Origin: an uncultured bacterium
GTDB lineage: Bacteria; Patescibacteriota; CALEFQ01
Assembly: GCA_937877125.1 (NCBI GenBank)
Contig: CALEFQ010000046.1
Location: forward strand, 1-16,891
Direction of reading: 5' to 3'
DNA length: 16,891 nucleotides
Each line of letters opens with the position of its first letter. Position 1 is the stretch's first letter. Of the stretch, positions 2,307 to 14,385 are shown piece by piece. Below the pieces are notes generated by a model, which saw only the letters and a program-made list of their open reading frames with translations, did no database searches and was not told the origin of the DNA. Made by a program: the position numbers and the translations under genes.

Positions 2307-3953
2307 ATGCCAAAATCTCAGCCGAAATATATCTTTATCTCCGGGGGCGTTATTTCCGGCCTCGGCAAAGGCGTCACCTCTTCCTCGATCGCTAAAATAC
2401 TGCAGCACTACGGCTTGCGCGTCACTCAGATAAAATGCGAAATGTATGTCAATGTCGATGCCGGGACGATTCGTCCGACCGAACATGGCGAAGTTTTTGT
2501 CTGCGCCGACGGCACCGAAACCGACCAGGATCTCGGAACCTATGAAAGATTTTCCGGGTTGACGCTCGGCCACGACAATTTCGTGACTACCGGACAGATT
2601 TACCAAGCGGTGATTCAGCGAGAGAGAAACCTGGAATATGACGGGGAAGATGTCGAAGTTGTCCCGCATGTTCCTTTGGAAATAATCTCCCGTATCAAAA
2701 AGGCCGGCAAAAAAGGACGCGCTGATATCGTCATCGTCGAACTGGGCGGAACTGTCGGCGAGTACCAGCAGGTTCTCTTTCTCGAAGCCGCTCGCATGCT
2801 CAAGCTGGAAGTCGGTCGCGATGTGCTCAATATACACTTAGCCTACTTGCCGATACCGGCCAGTATCGGGGAAATGAAATCGAAGCCGGCTCAATATTCG
2901 GTCAAAACTCTTTTTTCCGCCGGCATCGTGCCGGATATCTTTATCGGTCGGGCGGAGCGCCCCCTGGACAAGCCGCGCATTAGCACCTTGTCCCGAAACA
3001 CCGGTATCCCCGTCAAGTCCATCTTCTCCAATCCAGACGTCAAATCGATTTATGAAGTGCCGATATTGCTGAACCGCCAAAGGATCGGCGAGCGCATCCT
3101 GGAATTACTGGGCTACCCCAAACAGAAACACCCAAAAATCAGCGACTTCGCCCGACTGCTGAAAACAATTCAGGCCGAAAAACCCGAGGTCAAAATCGCC
3201 ATTGTGGGTAAATATTTTGATACCGGTAATTTTGCCCTGGCCGACTCGTATGTTTCCGTGATTGAAGCGATCAAGCACGCCTGCTGGTATTATCGCCGCG
3301 AACCGAAGTTGCAATGGATTAATTCCAAAGATTACGAGAAAGACCCGCGTCGAGTTCAAGAGCTTTCTGAATTTGACGGCGTGATTATCCCCGGCGGTTT
3401 CGGCAAAACCGGCGTGGAAGGCAAGATCAGGGCCGTAAAATACATTCGGGAAAACAAAATCCCGTACCTCGGCCTATGCTACGGCATGCAAATGGCGATT
3501 ATCGAATTTGCGCGCAATCTCTGCGGTCTGCGGCGCGCTCACACGACGGAAGTCGATCCCCGCACCGCTTATCCTGTTATCGACATCCTGCCGGAACAAA
3601 AAGAAAAAATGGCCCGCCATCAATACGGAGCCACGATGCGGCTCGGCAATCACAAAGCTGTGCTCCTGCCGAAATCACTGGTAGGGAAGGCCTACGGCAA
3701 GCGTGTTGTTACCGAGCGCCACCGCCATCGCTACGAAGTCAATCCTAAATACATAAAAAAGCTGGAATCGCGCGGCGCAATCTTTTCCGGGCGTTCGCCG
3801 GACCGCCGCCTGATGGAATTCTTCGAACTTCCGCCTTCCCAGCACCCCTTCTTCGTCAGCACCCAGGCGCACCCAGAATTTTTGTCCCACCCGACCGACC
3901 CGCATCCCTTATTTCGCGATTTTATAAAAAGCGCGATCGCTCGCTCGAGGTAA
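2307..3953 (+). CDS. pyrG: CTP synthase (glutamine-hydrolysing)
   Basis: Makes CTP from UTP, ATP and glutamine in the cytoplasm. The 548 residues are the usual length. The N-terminal synthase domain (about 1-275) has the P-loop-like 'SGGVISGLGKGVTSSS', 'HGEVFVCADGTETDQDLG', 'ELGGTVGE' and 'GEMKSKPAQYSVKTL'. The C-terminal class I glutaminase domain (about 300-548) has nucleophile Cys391 in 'GLCYGMQMA', the His522/Glu524 pair in 'AHPEF', and 'YGATMRLG' plus 'ERHRHRYEVNP'. Several usually conserved synthase-domain residues differ: 'KCEMYVNVDAGT' for KxDPYxNVDPGT, Thr where E. coli has His75, 'VGEYQQ' for VGDIES, and 'PAQYS' for PTQHS. The catalytic residues I can identify are intact, so it is probably active. 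No Shine-Dalgarno precedes the ATG. It is bounded by hairpins on both sides. Confidence 0.96.
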   Translation: MPKSQPKYIFISGGVISGLGKGVTSSSIAKILQHYGLRVTQIKCEMYVNVDAGTIRPTEHGEVFVCADGTETDQDLGTYERFSGLTLGHDNFVTTGQIYQAVIQRERNLEYDGEDVEVVPHVPLEIISRIKKAGKKGRADIVIVELGGTVGEYQQVLFLEAARMLKLEVGRDVLNIHLAYLPIPASIGEMKSKPAQYSVKTLFSAGIVPDIFIGRAERPLDKPRISTLSRNTGIPVKSIFSNPDVKSIYEVPILLNRQRIGERILELLGYPKQKHPKISDFARLLKTIQAEKPEVKIAIVGKYFDTGNFALADSYVSVIEAIKHACWYYRREPKLQWINSKDYEKDPRRVQELSEFDGVIIPGGFGKTGVEGKIRAVKYIRENKIPYLGLCYGMQMAIIEFARNLCGLRRAHTTEVDPRTAYPVIDILPEQKEKMARHQYGATMRLGNHKAVLLPKSLVGKAYGKRVVTERHRHRYEVNPKYIKKLESRGAIFSGRSPDRRLMEFFELPPSQHPFFVSTQAHPEFLSHPTDPHPLFRDFIKSAIARSR

Positions 3954-4480: not shown

Positions 4481-5746
4481 TTACTTCACGAAAACAGCGA
4501 TCTCCCGACCGACGATTTGTCGCGGACGTTCGTAGAGGAGCGTGCCCCTATCGCCAGGTTCGTAATTAATTAATTTGGTCATTTCGTCGGTGAAAAAACT
4601 AACCTTAGTATACCCAAGCTGCCTGATATTGTCAAGAATCGGCAAGAAGTCGCGCGAACCGTTAGGGGAGAGGTAATAAGGAAAAACCGCCACTATCTTG
4701 CCTCCGGGGGCAAGGATTCTTTTATATTGTTCGAAAGCTTTAAGGTGAAGCCGGGACAATTGTCCGAAATATTTCGCCCTTAAACTAACGCCCGGAACGC
4801 GGGACAAGGCTGGCCCAAGCAGGCCCTCCGTCACAATAGCGTCAGCGGTATTAGCTGGAAAATGGCGCCCCAAAAAATGGACATCGACCGCCTGGAGCGA
4901 TAGCACCTGGTTCGTCGGCAATTTGTAACTACTAATCAGCCAATCCAGGTTTTGTTTGGCTTTTTTAATTGTGTCAGCGGAAGCGTCCGTGCCGATTACT
5001 TTGTAACCGCGTAATAAAGCCTCCTGAAGGATCGTACCCATGCCGCAAAAGGGGTCGAACACTACGCCGGCCTTGGGAATTTCAGCTAAATTGATCAGTA
5101 TCTGCGCCAGCTTAGGCGGTATCATGCCGGATTTCGGATCGGCGGCCGGCCGGCCGTAATCGCGGCGGCTGTAATTTTCGAAATCCTGGACCGCCAAGGT
5201 TTTCCCTAACGCCAGGTAATGGTCATCAAAAATAACGGCGATGTCAGCGCCCCGCGATAGCAACTTGTTTTTACTGACCACCACCGACGACAGAGCCGCG
5301 TCCTCGCTTACCACCAAGCGGCTCCCTAGATTTTGGCGCCGCAACGCTTGTTTCAGATCGATCCCGAAAGTCCGTAAAAATATTTGCAGATCTTTCGGGC
5401 TAAACTGGGAAGCCAGCGGGTAAACACTGAAACCGAATTCTATTTTTTGTTTTGTCTGGGCCAAATATAACCTAGCTAATTTATCCGGCGTAATTTCACT
5501 CTCAATTACTTTACGAGCCGTGGCTAAAGAAGAGAAGTTTTCGCTGTTGATGAGAATTATTTTGACCGTGCCGCCCAGTTCGGCCAGGCAGGTTTCCGGC
5601 GCCAAGAGGGGAGCGGGTGACTCGGCTATTAACAGGCCATTACCAAAACGCACCGGTTTCCAGCCGGCTTGTCGCTTAAGCCACACCGCTAATTCGGCCA
5701 GGGACAACAAAGGGCGATGCCCCAAAACAAAAGCGTAACGATACAT
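4481..5746 (-). CDS. TrmG10/Trm11-like SAM-dependent methyltransferase (UPF0020 family)
   Basis: Probably modifies RNA, by analogy with archaeal Trm-G10 and eukaryotic Trm11 (guanosine-10 N2 of tRNA). The 421-residue protein has an N-terminal region (about 1-185) in the position of a THUMP-like RNA-binding module. The family signature '[20 protein letters not shown]' follows at 195-214, then a Rossmann methyltransferase core with SAM motif I '[19 protein letters not shown]' (229-247) and acidic motif II 'VIGTDAS'. Motif IV, usually DPPYG in this family, reads '[11 protein letters not shown]' (302-312), so the catalytic Asp-Pro-Pro-Tyr is missing. The fold is confident; the substrate is not. 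It leads a cluster with rpmA, 32 nt upstream of it. Confidence 0.8.
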
Positions 5747-5767
5747 AGGCGCCAGTTAATTATTGTT

Positions 5768-5796
5768 AGTTTAACCGATGCCGGATCTTTTGTAAA
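5768..5796 (-). promoter_or_regulatory. possible promoter for the methyltransferase-rpmA cluster
   Basis: On the minus strand, TTTACA (5796-5791) and TAAACT (5773-5768) are separated by 17 nt, about 20 nt upstream of the methyltransferase ATG. The -10 matches consensus at only four of six positions. Confidence 0.35.
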
Positions 5797-5800
5797 TCAC

Positions 5801-5828
5801 TTGACAGCTGATCAGGAAAAGATATACT
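5801..5828 (+). promoter_or_regulatory. sigma70-type promoter for the Phd-like/iscS/iscU operon
   Basis: A perfect -35 TTGACA (5801-5806) and a -10 TATACT (5823-5828) have a 16-nt spacer. The predicted start is near 5835, leaving a leader of about 24 nt before the ATG at 5859. No Shine-Dalgarno is present in the leader. Confidence 0.7.
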
Positions 5829-5840
5829 ACATCTTGTATA
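5823..5840. promoter_or_regulatory. inverted repeat over the -10/start site, candidate operator
   Basis: TATAC (5823-5827) and GTATA (5836-5840) form an inverted repeat with an 8-nt centre that covers the -10 element and the predicted transcription start. The palindrome ATTTAAAT follows at 5843-5850. Phd/YefM proteins are known to repress their own promoters through short palindromes, so this is a plausible autoregulatory site. The arms are short and AT-rich, so chance is possible. Confidence 0.35.
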
Positions 5841-5858
5841 ACATTTAAATTTGCCGCG

Positions 5859-6095
5859 ATGACGAATAATCGTGAAAAATACACCAATCAGAACGAATTA
5901 AAAATCAAAACCAAAGATATCATTAACGACACCGCCGCCGGCAATCGTTATATTGTGTTACGGTACTCAAAACCAGTGGCCGTTCTTTTGGGCATGGACG
6001 AATATTGCAAATTGACCGGACAGCCGCCAAAAAATTGCCGGCAGTGTCAAAAAGTTATCGGCCAGGCACTGGCCAAATTAGACAAAATAAAATGA
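5859..6095 (+). CDS. Phd/YefM-like small DNA-binding protein with three cysteines
   Basis: The 78-residue protein matches the Phd/YefM antitoxin pattern: a charged N-terminus, 'DIINDTAAGNRYIVLRYSKPVAVLLG' (split here only by naming, residues 20-45) and 'MDEYCKL'. In type II toxin-antitoxin systems this fold binds DNA with its N-terminal part and the toxin with its C-terminus. No toxin gene is next to it. Its TGA overlaps the iscS ATG (ATGA, 6092-6095), which suggests coupled translation. It has Cys50, Cys60 and Cys63, the last two as CxxC in 'NCRQC'. Three cysteines next to Fe-S genes suggest a metal or Fe-S sensing regulator, but that is inference. An orphan antitoxin is the plain alternative. 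Confidence 0.7.
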   Translation: MTNNREKYTNQNELKIKTKDIINDTAAGNRYIVLRYSKPVAVLLGMDEYCKLTGQPPKNCRQCQKVIGQALAKLDKIK

Positions 6096-7267
6096 AAACT
6101 ATCTATCTCGATCATGCCGCCACGACGCCCGTCGATTCTCGGGTCCTAAAAAAAATGTTGCCCTATTTCCAGGACCAATTCGGCAACGCCTCCTCCGTGC
6201 ACCGCTTAGGGCAAGAGGCGTCCCAGGCCGTGGAAGGAGCCCGGGAACAGGCAGCTGGATTCTTAGGCGCTAAACCGGAAGAAATTATTTTTAACAGTGG
6301 CGCCACCGAAGGCAATAACACCGTGATCAAAACCGTTGCCCGTTTGCTCAAGAAGCAAAAAGGGCTAAACCACTTGATCACGTCGGCTATCGAGCACCAT
6401 TGCGTCTTGGAGACCATGCAATCTTTGGAAAAAGAAGGATTTAAAGTGACCTATTTGCCGGTCGGCCAGCAGGGGATTGTCAGCCCAGAAGATTTTCGCC
6501 AGGCTCTGACCCCGCAAACATCTCTAGCCTCTATCATGTACGCCAATAACGAAATCGGCACGATTCAGCCGATTGCCGAACTGGCTCGCCTCGCCAAGGA
6601 ACGCCGGGTGCTTTTCCATACCGATGCCGTTCAGGCGGCTAATTATCTCGACTGCCGAGTGAACCAGCTTGGCGTAGACTATCTTACACTTTCCGCTCAT
6701 AAATTTTACGGGCCGAAAGGCGTGGGCTTGATTTACCGACGTACCGGCGCTCCGCTGACGCCTTATTTGCACGGCGGCGCCCAAGAAAACCATCTGCGCG
6801 CCGGCACGCTAAATGTCCCGGGCATTGTCGGACTGGGAGAAGCCATCGCCCTAACCCGGTCGGAACAGGCACAGCGAAGTAAGCAGGCTGGCCGCTTGTC
6901 GACCCGGCTCAGGGTTGGTTTAACCGAGAAAATACCTGACCTGCTAATTAATGGCGATACCAAACGGCGTCTGCCCAACAATGTTAATATCACGATAAAA
7001 TACGTCGAAGGTGAAAGTCTGCTCATTAGCCTCGACCTGAAACAAATCGCTGTTTCTACCGGATCGGCCTGTTCTTCCGGATCACTCCAGCCGTCACATG
7101 TCATCCTCGCCCTCGGTGTCCCAAAGGAATTCAGCCACGGGAGCTTACGTTTTACAGTCGGCCAAGATAACACCCTAGACGATATCGAAACAGTAATCAA
7201 GGATTTACCGCCGATAGTTTCCCGTTTACGCAAAATGTCGCCAACCGCACCTGCTAAATATCATTAA
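6092..7267 (+). CDS. iscS: Cysteine desulfurase (IscS/NifS family)
   Basis: A PLP enzyme that removes sulfur from cysteine and passes it, as persulfide, to Fe-S scaffolds and to tRNA thiolation. I chose the ATG at 6092 (391 residues, 'MKTIYLDHAATTP') because this is the family N-terminus; an in-frame ATG at 6005 would add residues encoded inside the preceding gene. The PLP lysine is Lys204 in 'SAHKFYGPKG'. The sulfur-accepting Cys327 lies in 'STGSACSSGS'. 'MYANNEIGTIQP' and 'HTDAVQA' are the expected cofactor-pocket motifs. It overlaps the Phd-like gene by 4 nt and precedes iscU by 9 nt, forming a compact Fe-S operon. Confidence 0.96.
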   Translation: MKTIYLDHAATTPVDSRVLKKMLPYFQDQFGNASSVHRLGQEASQAVEGAREQAAGFLGAKPEEIIFNSGATEGNNTVIKTVARLLKKQKGLNHLITSAIEHHCVLETMQSLEKEGFKVTYLPVGQQGIVSPEDFRQALTPQTSLASIMYANNEIGTIQPIAELARLAKERRVLFHTDAVQAANYLDCRVNQLGVDYLTLSAHKFYGPKGVGLIYRRTGAPLTPYLHGGAQENHLRAGTLNVPGIVGLGEAIALTRSEQAQRSKQAGRLSTRLRVGLTEKIPDLLINGDTKRRLPNNVNITIKYVEGESLLISLDLKQIAVSTGSACSSGSLQPSHVILALGVPKEFSHGSLRFTVGQDNTLDDIETVIKDLPPIVSRLRKMSPTAPAKYH

Positions 7268-7276
7268 TAAAAAAAT

Positions 7277-7654
7277 ATGTATAATAAACAGATCATGGAT
7301 CATTTTCAGAACCCGCGAAATCAAGGATCACTTGAGCGGCCCGACGGAGAAGGGGAGGCCGGTAATCCGGTTTGCGGCGATATGATGCACATCTATCTCC
7401 GTGTCAAAGACAATAAAATCACCGATATTAAATTTCAGACTCTTGGCTGCGGCGTCGCTATCGCCACTTCCTCCGTACTAACAACTCTGGCCAAAGGCAA
7501 AACCCTGGAGGAAGCGGCCAAAATCACTAAAATGGACATCATAAATCAGCTTGGCGGCAAGGATCAAATCCCGCCCCAGAAATTTCACTGCAGTATTATT
7601 GCCGAAGAAGCTCTCGGCAAAGCAATTGCGGATTATCGACAAAAACCAAAATAA
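7277..7654 (+). CDS. iscU: Fe-S cluster scaffold protein IscU
   Basis: Receives sulfur from IscS and iron to build [2Fe-2S] clusters before transfer to target proteins. The 125 residues show all ligand residues: Cys33 and Asp35 in 'GNPVCGD', Cys58 in 'TLGCGVAIATSS', and His104-Cys105 in 'KFHCS'. 'IPPQK' (98-102) sits where the chaperone-binding LPPVK motif lies in E. coli IscU, although I see no hscA/hscB here. The start ATG is 9 nt after the iscS stop. I see no clear terminator after it; the next gene has its own promoter. Confidence 0.94.
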   Translation: MYNKQIMDHFQNPRNQGSLERPDGEGEAGNPVCGDMMHIYLRVKDNKITDIKFQTLGCGVAIATSSVLTTLAKGKTLEEAAKITKMDIINQLGGKDQIPPQKFHCSIIAEEALGKAIADYRQKPK

Positions 7655-7661
7655 AGGGCGC

Positions 7662-7690
7662 TTGGTTCTTATCGCCTAAAATGGTATAAT
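7662..7690 (+). promoter_or_regulatory. extended -10 promoter for the PrsW-like gene
   Basis: TTGGTT (7662-7667) and TATAAT (7685-7690) are 17 nt apart, and TGG just before the -10 makes it an extended -10 element. The predicted start near 7697 gives a leader of about 16 nt. Confidence 0.7.
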
Positions 7691-7700
7691 CTAGGGGATT

Positions 7701-7706
7701 AGGTGA
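7701..7706 (+). promoter_or_regulatory. Shine-Dalgarno of the PrsW-like gene
   Basis: AGGTGA lies 6 nt before the ATG at 7713. It is the clearest Shine-Dalgarno in the window, where most starts have none, and it supports this start choice. Confidence 0.6.
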
Positions 7707-7712
7707 TCTCGC

Positions 7713-8678
7713 ATGGCCTCATCTTTTTCCGTTATATTCCTAGCTGTCTTCCTAGGGTTTTCCCCCGGGTTGTTTTGGTTGTGGTTTTATCGCCAGCGCG
7801 ATAAAAAGAATCCGGAGCCGAATAAGCTGATGATCTACCTGTTTTTGGGAGGTATGGCCTCCACTATTCCGGCCGCATTATTGCAAAAATTCGCCCAGGA
7901 ATTCATCCCGCCCCAGTTTTTGCTCTGCCTGGACAACGCCTGCAATCTGAACGTCGGCGGTAATGCTTTGTTCCTACTGGGGTTTATGTTTCTGATCGTC
8001 GCCCCTACGGAAGAAATATTTAAGTTTCTTTTCGCCCGGTGGATTTCCTTTAAGTCCAACTCCTTCGACCAGATTATCGATGGCATCAAATACAGCGTGG
8101 CCGTGGCCTTAGGCTTTGCCTCGCTGGAAAACGCCCTCTACCTGATGGGGTCGCTTCAGATTGCCGACTTCGACACGGTAGTATCTACCTTATTGACTAG
8201 GTTTTTCATATCGACGCTGGCCCACACGCTATATGCCGGCATCAGCGGTTATTACCTAGGGCGCGCCCGTTTCGACAGCTACAATCGCCGCCGCTTGCTC
8301 TGGACCGGCTTAATCCTGGCAATTATCGCACATGGCGCGTTTAACTTCATGCTTTATAGCGGGATCGGTTTTTATTCTATCCTGTTAGTCGCTTTAATCT
8401 TTCTGATTTTACTCCAAAAATTCCGGAGCAAGGAACTGACTCGAGTACAGCAGATCGCTGTTTCCACGGGCAGTCAGCGGATTTCTTCGGCCGCGCTGCC
8501 GTCCGAATCCGGAACTGGCGACCGGACGGTTACGGACTTGATAAAAGCCAGCCGGGAGCAGGCAGACCCGATGCAAGTCACCGTTTCCGAATTTTGCCCG
8601 CGCTGTTTCAAGAAAAATATCTACCATTCAAAATTCTGCCCGAATTGCGGTGAAAAATTATACATAAAAGTGCGCTGA
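7713..8678 (+). CDS. PrsW-like intramembrane protease with C-terminal zinc ribbon
   Basis: A polytopic membrane protein of 321 residues related to PrsW, the site-1 protease of the B. subtilis SigW pathway. Hydrophobic segments fall at about 5-25, 38-58, 84-108, 125-146, 160-182, 196-216 and 218-235. The conserved residues of the family are present: 'EEIFKF' (Glu100, Glu101), 'FASLEN' (Glu139), His171 in 'HTLYAG' and His207 in 'HGAFNF'. After a polar linker (about 240-290) the tail has CPRC...CPNC (Cys295, 298, 309, 312), a zinc ribbon probably on the cytoplasmic side. No anti-sigma factor is visible nearby, so the substrate is unknown. It has its own promoter and Shine-Dalgarno, and the next gene starts 4 nt after its TGA stop. 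Confidence 0.85.
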   Translation: MASSFSVIFLAVFLGFSPGLFWLWFYRQRDKKNPEPNKLMIYLFLGGMASTIPAALLQKFAQEFIPPQFLLCLDNACNLNVGGNALFLLGFMFLIVAPTEEIFKFLFARWISFKSNSFDQIIDGIKYSVAVALGFASLENALYLMGSLQIADFDTVVSTLLTRFFISTLAHTLYAGISGYYLGRARFDSYNRRRLLWTGLILAIIAHGAFNFMLYSGIGFYSILLVALIFLILLQKFRSKELTRVQQIAVSTGSQRISSAALPSESGTGDRTVTDLIKASREQADPMQVTVSEFCPRCFKKNIYHSKFCPNCGEKLYIKVR

Positions 8679-12891: not shown

Positions 12892-14385
12892 TTATTTTTT
12901 GAGACGGTTCAGGCCAGACTGTATTCGGCGCAACGATTGAGTTTTGCCTAAGACGCCCATTATTTCAAACGGTGACGGACTTCTTTCCTTACCTGATAAA
13001 GCAAAACGAAGCGGCCAAAACATAGTTCCGTTGTCAATCCCCTGCTCTTTAGCGAAAGCTAATAAGGCAGGTTCTAATTTTGCCTGAACGAAATCCGCCT
13101 CAGTAAATAATTCGAGGCGATCCAAGGCCTTTTGCATCGCTAAAATAGTTTTAGGCCGGTCCGATTTGCGCCAGACCAGCTGGGCCGGATCATAATCCAG
13201 TTTTTCGCTGAAAAAAAAGCCGATGGCCTCCGGCAAATCAGACAGTTTTTTTATGCGAGATTGTTCCAGGGCGATCGCTTTTTCAATAAATTTTGTGTTC
13301 GCGCGATAATCTTGATAGCCCGGCAATGAACACAGGTATTGTTCGGATAGCTCGCGAACCCGAGGCACCGGCAGAGTCCGCAGATACTTGCCGTTGACCC
13401 AATTAAGTTTTTCTAAGTCAAAAACAGCCGCGGCTTTATGCACCTGGGCAAGCTCGAATCGCTTGACCAGTTCCGGCAAAGTAAAAATCTCTTCGGCGGT
13501 TTTCGGATTCCAGCCCAGGAGGACAATAAAATTAAGAATCGCGTCTTTTAAATAGCCTTTTTTGATGTAATCATCAACCGCCACATCACCACGACGCTTT
13601 GACAGCTTTTTTCTTTCCCGATCAACCAACAACGGCAAATGGGCGTAAGAAGGAACCGGCCATCTAAAAGCTTGATACAAAAAAATATGCTTCGGTGTTG
13701 AAGAAAGCCACTCCTCTCCCCTGATTATATCCGTCACTCCCATCAAATGATCATCAATTACCACCGCCAGATGATAAGTCGGGAAACCGTCGGATTTGAG
13801 CAAAACCTGATCATCGACCAGCTTGTTTTCAAACTGGACTCTTTTCCGAATCACGTCCTTGAAAACCGTATAGCCGTCGCGCGGTACTTTTAGACGAACA
13901 ACGTAAGGAGTTTTCTGGTCCAACTTTTGCTTAATCTGCTGTTCCGTCAATTGCAGACACCGGCGGTCATACATCGGCGGCACCCCGCGTTGTTGCTGAT
14001 CCGTCCGCATCGCCTCCAAGTCTTCTCTGGTACAAAAACACCGATAAGCATGGCCATGGTCGATGAGCTGTTTGGTGTACTCACGATAAATAGCCGTTCG
14101 CTTCGATTGGATATAGGGTCCGTTCTGGCCGCGTTCCTGGATTTTACCGTCCGAGGTCAGAACCGGGCCTTCATCATAATCAAAACCCGCCCAATTTAAA
14201 GTGCGGACGATTTGTTCGATCGCGCCCGGCACAAAACGCTCTCGATCGGTATCCTCGATCCGCAGGATAAACTTACCGCCGTTGTGCCTGGCCCAAAGAT
14301 AAGAATAAAGAGCGGTTCGCAAACTGCCGACATGCATCATTCCGGTGGGCGAAGGAGCGAAACGAGTAACAATATTTTTGTTCAT
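12892..14385 (-). CDS. gltX: Glutamyl-tRNA synthetase
   Basis: Charges tRNA-Glu with glutamate in the cytoplasm. The 497-residue protein is a class I synthetase: 'PSPTGMMHVGS' carries the HIGH-type motif as HVGS (His18), and 'KKLSKRRGD' carries the KMSKS-type motif (Lys260-Arg264). 'FILRIEDTDRERF' is the usual glutamate-pocket signature. Cys117, Cys119 and Cys143 fit the zinc-binding insertion. A complete anticodon-binding C-terminal half follows. I cannot tell from the sequence whether it also charges tRNA-Gln; no gat genes are visible. It starts 3 nt after the WecG/TagA gene and is followed 4 nt later by the M23/FG-GAP gene, so it is mid-operon. Confidence 0.96.
   Translation of the reverse strand: MNKNIVTRFAPSPTGMMHVGSLRTALYSYLWARHNGGKFILRIEDTDRERFVPGAIEQIVRTLNWAGFDYDEGPVLTSDGKIQERGQNGPYIQSKRTAIYREYTKQLIDHGHAYRCFCTREDLEAMRTDQQQRGVPPMYDRRCLQLTEQQIKQKLDQKTPYVVRLKVPRDGYTVFKDVIRKRVQFENKLVDDQVLLKSDGFPTYHLAVVIDDHLMGVTDIIRGEEWLSSTPKHIFLYQAFRWPVPSYAHLPLLVDRERKKLSKRRGDVAVDDYIKKGYLKDAILNFIVLLGWNPKTAEEIFTLPELVKRFELAQVHKAAAVFDLEKLNWVNGKYLRTLPVPRVRELSEQYLCSLPGYQDYRANTKFIEKAIALEQSRIKKLSDLPEAIGFFFSEKLDYDPAQLVWRKSDRPKTILAMQKALDRLELFTEADFVQAKLEPALLAFAKEQGIDNGTMFWPLRFALSGKERSPSPFEIMGVLGKTQSLRRIQSGLNRLKK

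What the first reader, a model, noticed from the sequence alone, without database searches (positions are those of the whole stretch)
5801..7654. Phd/YefM-like protein with three cysteines coupled to iscS-iscU: possible local Fe-S regulator
Seen: a 78-residue Phd/YefM-like gene with no toxin partner overlaps iscS by ATGA, carries Cys50, Cys60 and Cys63, and sits behind a TTGACA promoter whose -10 lies in a TATAC-n8-GTATA inverted repeat. Known: Phd/YefM proteins repress their own promoters through palindromes, and the unrelated regulator IscR uses three cysteines to hold a cluster and control isc genes. Inference: an antitoxin fold may have been recruited as an IscR-like sensor in a lineage without IscR.
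Basis: partly seen in the sequence, partly recalled or inferred. Interest (0 to 1): 0.7.

Follow-up and report, generated by a model that had tools for sequence, protein, structure and literature searches.

The report
Cysteine-tailed antitoxin-like gene beside iscS-iscU
A small protein built like a DNA-binding antitoxin, but with no toxin beside it and with a conserved two-cysteine motif on its tail, is encoded in one operon with the iron-sulfur cluster genes of what is probably an ultra-small bacterium, and it may switch that operon on and off.

Summary
The gene is real: 78 aa, 5859-6095, overlapping iscS by ATGA, with no toxin beside it; profiles and a model give the Phd/YefM fold. Cys50 is not conserved (21 of 167 homologues), but Cys60-x-x-Cys63 marks a family: 165 of 167 fetched homologues have CxxC, including 118 of the 120 listed by a profile that left that region out. 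All 12 homologues shown with an organism name are Patescibacteria/CPR. None of 67 Phd-type ORFs of other groups found with the same profile has CxxC, and no family-level score appeared in about 1,780 non-CPR genomes. The inverted repeat at the -10 is at chance level. Elsewhere the gene before iscS is often an Rrf2/IscR-type regulator (30 of 74 loci); here a CxxC-Phd gene holds that place. Best reading: a toxin-less Phd/YefM autorepressor whose dimer carries two CxxC motifs as a metal, Fe-S or thiol switch. The Fe-S link rests on this one operon: neighbourhoods of the homologues could not be fetched, so the decisive test, co-conservation with iscS, stays open.

The parts
5801..5828 (+). sigma-70-like promoter: TTGACA (5801-5806), 16-base spacer, TATACT (5823-5828)
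   Evidence: 11 of 12 consensus matches; ends 30 bases before the ATG
5823..5840 (.). TATAC-n8-GTATA inverted repeat over the -10 (candidate operator, not significant)
   Evidence: present; repeats with 5-bp arms are expected by chance
5859..6095 (+). CxxC-tailed Phd/YefM-like protein, 78 aa
   Evidence: fold; family
6006..6008 (+). Cys50 codon (subgroup feature, not conserved in the family)
   Evidence: read; Cys in 21 of 167 homologues
6036..6047 (+). Cys60-Arg-Gln-Cys63: CxxC at the start of the last helix
   Evidence: 165 of 167 homologues have CxxC; helix 61-77 in the model
6092..7267 (+). iscS, cysteine desulfurase (IscS/NifS type), 391 aa, ATGA overlap with the gene before it
   Evidence: PF00266 280.4 bits; best NCBIfam model TIGR03402 504.6 bits (below its cut-off of 530.75)
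7277..7654 (+). iscU/nifU-type Fe-S scaffold, 125 aa, 9 bases after iscS
   Evidence: PF01592 154.1 bits; best NCBIfam model TIGR03419 168.3 bits (below its cut-off of 187.9)
4481..5746 (-). divergent methyltransferase gene; marks the upstream limit of the operon
   Evidence: PF01555 and PF01170 over their cut-offs

Best explanation
The gene encodes a toxin-less Phd/YefM-fold repressor of a family that, as far as tested, is confined to CPR bacteria. The antitoxin's toxin-binding tail has become a short helix that opens with CxxC. The likely mechanism: the protein dimerises through the Phd domain, binds the promoter at about 5801-5840 and represses its own operon (itself, iscS, iscU). The two CxxC motifs of the dimer (four thiols) hold a metal or Fe-S cluster, or form reversible disulfides, so that repression is relieved when Fe-S or thiol status falls. 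Supported by results here: the fold (profile and model), the CxxC conservation, the operon and the absence of an adjacent toxin. Inferred: DNA binding, autoregulation, the dimer, the ligand and the sensing.
Against: The gene neighbourhood is known for the window only. The family is large (803 hits to the N-terminal profile, 120 listed) and may serve many operons that have nothing to do with Fe-S. Two thiols per subunit are also what a structural zinc site would show. No significant operator was found. The third cysteine is not conserved. The models are monomers, so whether the two CxxC motifs meet in a dimer is unknown. Pfam's own Phd/YefM cut-off is not reached by the window protein.
Confidence: 0.4

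Rival explanations
1. Structural-zinc regulator. The CxxC pair is a permanent Zn site or dimer clamp that replaces toxin binding as the stabiliser of a Phd repressor. The family regulates various CPR operons, and iscSU is only one of them; nothing is sensed.
For: CxxC is conserved across diverse subgroups with five main spacings from RYSKP (21, 22, 23, 25 and 28 residues). The commonest motifs have basic residues between the cysteines (CKRC 26, CKKC 18, CRKC 16), as in many zinc knuckles (recalled). The family is large.
Against: The window member lies in an Fe-S assembly operon. Only two conserved ligands per chain, so a dimer is needed.
Confidence: 0.27
2. Sulfur carrier or IscS partner. The CxxC tail takes persulfide from IscS or modulates it, and the Phd domain serves dimerisation or docking rather than DNA binding.
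For: Overlapping genes suggest coupled synthesis with IscS. CxxC at a helix start is a usual place for reactive thiols (general knowledge).
Against: Besides Cys60, the invariant residues of an alignment of 120 (window plus 119 of the 120 homologues; P0039 left out) lie in the Phd domain: R35, Y36, P39. No known sulfur carrier has this fold, as far as I recall.
Confidence: 0.1
3. True antitoxin whose toxin lies elsewhere, or remnant of a toxin-antitoxin pair captured by the operon.
For: Phd/YefM family profiles. Public sources name several homologues 'Phd/YefM family antitoxin' or 'prevent-host-death'. Phd antitoxins are known with Fic/Doc, PIN, RelE and MazF-type toxins (PMC2701414, passages).
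Against: No toxin family among the window genes scanned and none beside the gene. The tail is short and its CxxC near-invariant, whereas antitoxin tails follow their toxins (general knowledge). The best non-CPR hit, L152, lacks CxxC and is the one that lies beside a gene reading like a PIN toxin (by eye). Strong conservation speaks against decay.
Confidence: 0.12

Closest known systems
Phd/YefM antitoxins (PF02604; P1 Phd, E. coli YefM)
   Same: N-terminal fold, residues 6-59 of the model aligned to P1 Phd; profile match over residues 12-53
   Different: no adjacent toxin; toxin-binding tail replaced by a CxxC helix (0 of 67 control Phd-type ORFs have CxxC); operon partners are iscS and iscU
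IscR / RisR (Rrf2 family, PF02082)
   Same: small regulator-type gene at the head of an Fe-S operon; cysteines; same gene position (Rrf2 before iscS in 30 of 74 loci)
   Different: unrelated fold; two conserved cysteines instead of the three of IscR/RisR (PMC9973013, passages); no ligand shown
Archaeal HTH protein with C-x2-H...C...C tail before iscS (L078/L153, L169, L170, L172)
   Same: small DNA-binding-type protein with cysteines directly before iscS
   Different: HTH-like sequence (weak Pfam matches, all under cut-off); Cys/His motif; Woesearchaeota relatives; beside iscS in 4 of 20 loci read

Membership tests
Phd/YefM antitoxin (type II toxin-antitoxin) | Phd/YefM N-terminal fold | tested here: met
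   TIGR01552 over cut-off; PF02604 E 6.1e-5 but under its cut-off; structure matches
Phd/YefM antitoxin (type II toxin-antitoxin) | toxin gene next to it | tested here: not met
   neighbours are iscS and a divergent methyltransferase; a toxin elsewhere in the genome was not testable
Phd/YefM antitoxin (type II toxin-antitoxin) | binds an operator palindrome in its own promoter | tested here: inconclusive
   inverted repeat at chance level; no TGTACA; binding itself not testable
IscR-type Rrf2 regulator | Rrf2 winged-helix domain (PF02082) | tested here: not met
   Pfam scan at E <= 0.1 gives Phd/YefM and one chance-level family, not Rrf2
IscR-type Rrf2 regulator | three conserved cluster-binding cysteines | tested here: not met
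   third cysteine in 21 of 167 homologues; CxxC in 165 of 167
IscR-type Rrf2 regulator | binds a Fe-S cluster and represses the isc operon | not testable with these tools
   needs purified protein
CxxC-tailed Phd family of CPR (defined here) | Phd domain with RYSKP and C-terminal CxxC | tested here: met
   window scores 91.2 bits to profile A8 (it is one of the 76 rows of A8); 92 homologues outside A8 score 74.3 or more; best non-CPR hit to A8 43.1

The most novel reading that the evidence does not exclude
An antitoxin fold was turned, within CPR bacteria, into an Fe-S or metal sensor that does the work of IscR: a Phd dimer with a cluster or metal held by two CxxC motifs, controlling the minimal iscSU operon, with related members controlling other thiol or metal operons across the CPR.
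Probability: 0.25. Interest if true: 0.8.

Novelty: new variant of a known kind. Interest (0 to 1): 0.55.

Why it matters
Little is known of gene regulation in CPR bacteria (general knowledge), and public sources name several of these proteins antitoxins. A large family with a near-invariant CxxC where antitoxins bind toxins suggests that many CPR 'antitoxins' are stand-alone metal or redox regulators. If the iscS link holds, it would show how minimal genomes control Fe-S assembly by a fold not known for it.

Tried and rejected
Three-cysteine IscR-like motif: rejected; Cys50 is a subgroup feature (22 of 41 TNQxEL members counting the window, and in no homologue outside that subgroup). Inverted repeat as operator: not significant; the pattern-specific expectation of 0.16 is not a fair test because the pattern was taken from the sequence. 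RNA structure in the leader: z -1.79, 7 of 200 shuffles fold as well, weak. Homologues in IMG/VR with four alignments: none confirmed; in phages and plasmids with P0044 alone: none; window DNA 5501-8000 in phages: none. The iscU scan of IMG/VR gave none. No title among the 80 names a CPR genome; three titles name no phylum. Profiles A1 and A2 found no family-level match in these 80 loci (A1 none, A2 best 15.7 bits). Eight genome searches served as controls and partly to find stray CPR contigs; none found. PDB sequence search with the single protein gave only chance hits; with profile A2 the Phd antitoxin hits cover profile positions 2-49. Literature: ten searches listed no paper that, by title and start of abstract, deals with a CxxC Phd protein or with isc regulation in CPR; only the listings were read except for passages of PMC2701414, PMC9973013 and PMC4803016, and most subscription papers are not held.

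Full report
What is there. The ORF at 5859-6095 (+) encodes 78 aa with Cys50, Cys60 and Cys63. Its stop overlaps the iscS start by ATGA, and iscU follows 9 bases after iscS. IscS and IscU are confirmed by Pfam (280.4 and 154.1 bits); the best NCBIfam models, TIGR03402 and TIGR03419, fall below their cut-offs. A near-consensus promoter lies at 5801-5828. The upstream gene is divergent, and no toxin is encoded beside the small gene. Other genes of the window recognised by Pfam are an S41 protease, rplI, pyrG, a ribosomal L27 gene, two M23 peptidases, a WecG/TagA-type transferase, a LigT-type protein and a radical SAM protein and a PrsW protease; the radical SAM protein is a likely Fe-S client. 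The ORF at 12892-14385 reads like gltX (by eye).

Family. The first search found 9 homologues among 10 candidates; a profile of ten sequences found 145, 120 listed, 118 of them with CxxC. To avoid selecting for the cysteines I built a profile that stops before the CxxC region (A4). It found 803 proteins among 7,986 scored candidates; 120 are listed, and 118 of these 120 have CxxC, as do all 47 that had not been seen before. Over both lists 165 of 167 distinct proteins have CxxC; the exceptions are P0039 and P0110. The 20 seed pieces of A4 came from CxxC proteins, so the test is fair for the motif but confined to their relatives, and 683 hits were not listed. The Cys50 position is Cys in 21 of 167, all within the TNQxEL subgroup (22 of 41 counting the window). 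Of the 167, 12 are shown with an organism name, and all 12 are Patescibacteria, Berkelbacteria or CPR2; that the window itself is CPR is inferred from this.

Controls. Profile A2 (full length, built from 40 family members) run on other groups gave loci L089-L151, in which 67 Phd-type ORFs were read; 0 of 67 has CxxC. Genome surveys: 0 of 57 relatives of a Saganbacteria genome (A1); 1 of 327 in the phylum of a Woesearchaeota genome, a partial match without any cysteine (A2); 4 of 13 assorted genomes, none with CxxC; 82 of 301 in the phylum of a Dehalococcoidia genome, best 38.3 bits; 37 of 193 in the phylum of an Omnitrophica genome, best 40.2 bits. With A8 at E <= 1e-9: 1 of 392 (43.1 bits, no CxxC, beside a PIN-like gene), 0 of 299 and 0 of 198. 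In some searches only the best 30 loci each were fetched and read; the rest were judged by their scores. True members score 74.3 bits or more with A8, including 92 not used to build it. The sums add to 1,780 genomes, a few counted twice. 'CPR-specific' thus rests on 12 names and on these surveys.

Operon position. Around 80 iscS loci of other prokaryotes, 74 had a readable upstream ORF by my rule (same strand, at least 60 aa, ending between 500 bases before and 60 bases after the match start, longest taken); 6 were dropped. Rrf2 is upstream in 30 of 74 (E <= 1e-5); the longest-ORF rule may have picked the wrong ORF in some. In the window the CxxC-Phd gene takes that place. Rrf2 regulators are described as recruited several times independently into Fe-S gene clusters (PMC9973013, passages only).

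Operator. TATAC-n8-GTATA is present, but inverted repeats of that size occur in 75% of shuffles of the intergenic region and in 45% of shuffles of the promoter. The YefM core TGTACA, taken from passages of PMC4803016, is absent from the window.

Mechanism. Phd and YefM dimerise and bind operators by the N-terminal domain, and the YefM C-terminal peptide binds its toxin (PMC4803016, passages). Here the tail is a short CxxC helix. A dimer would carry four thiols, enough for Zn, a cluster or disulfides. I therefore favour a toxin-less autorepressor with a metal, Fe-S or thiol switch (0.4), with a structural-zinc regulator as the main rival (0.27). The spacing between RYSKP and CxxC varies (mainly 21, 22, 23, 25 or 28 residues; 25 in the window), which fits a helix of varying length before the motif; this is inference.

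Limits. The neighbourhoods of the homologues remained out of reach, and no whole genome is held for the window. The link between the family and Fe-S assembly therefore rests on one operon. The absence of IscR in this lineage is untested.

Noticed in passing
L078 (about 2618-3001), L153, L169, L170, L172: Woesearchaeota relatives carry an HTH-like protein with a conserved C-x2-H...C...C tail. A match at E <= 0.001 occurs in 72 of 117 genomes searched. The gene lies directly before iscS in 4 of the 20 loci read (L153 is L078 itself); in 15 no iscS match lies within about 1.5 kb, and in L158 iscS is not adjacent. In L078 it overlaps iscS by 4 bases. A possible archaeal Fe-S operon regulator.
   Followed up: partly
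L078 4176-5984: The iscU-like ORF after iscS is 602 aa long, with an inserted stretch that reads like an intein (by eye; not tested).
   Followed up: no
L085 5001-7211: A 216-kb IMG/VR contig carries iscS followed by an IscU-like and a DUF59-like ORF (the last two named by eye). L086 shows the same iscS match values on another IMG/VR contig (not read).
   Followed up: no
window 7713-8678: PrsW-family intramembrane protease gene 58 bases after iscU, with a C-terminal stretch weakly like a zinc ribbon (PF12773 20.4 bits, under its cut-off).
   Followed up: no
P0039 (protein): A family member close to P0030-P0036 in the Phd domain, whose tail departs from the CxxC pattern; could be a frameshift or an assembly error (by eye).
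   Followed up: no
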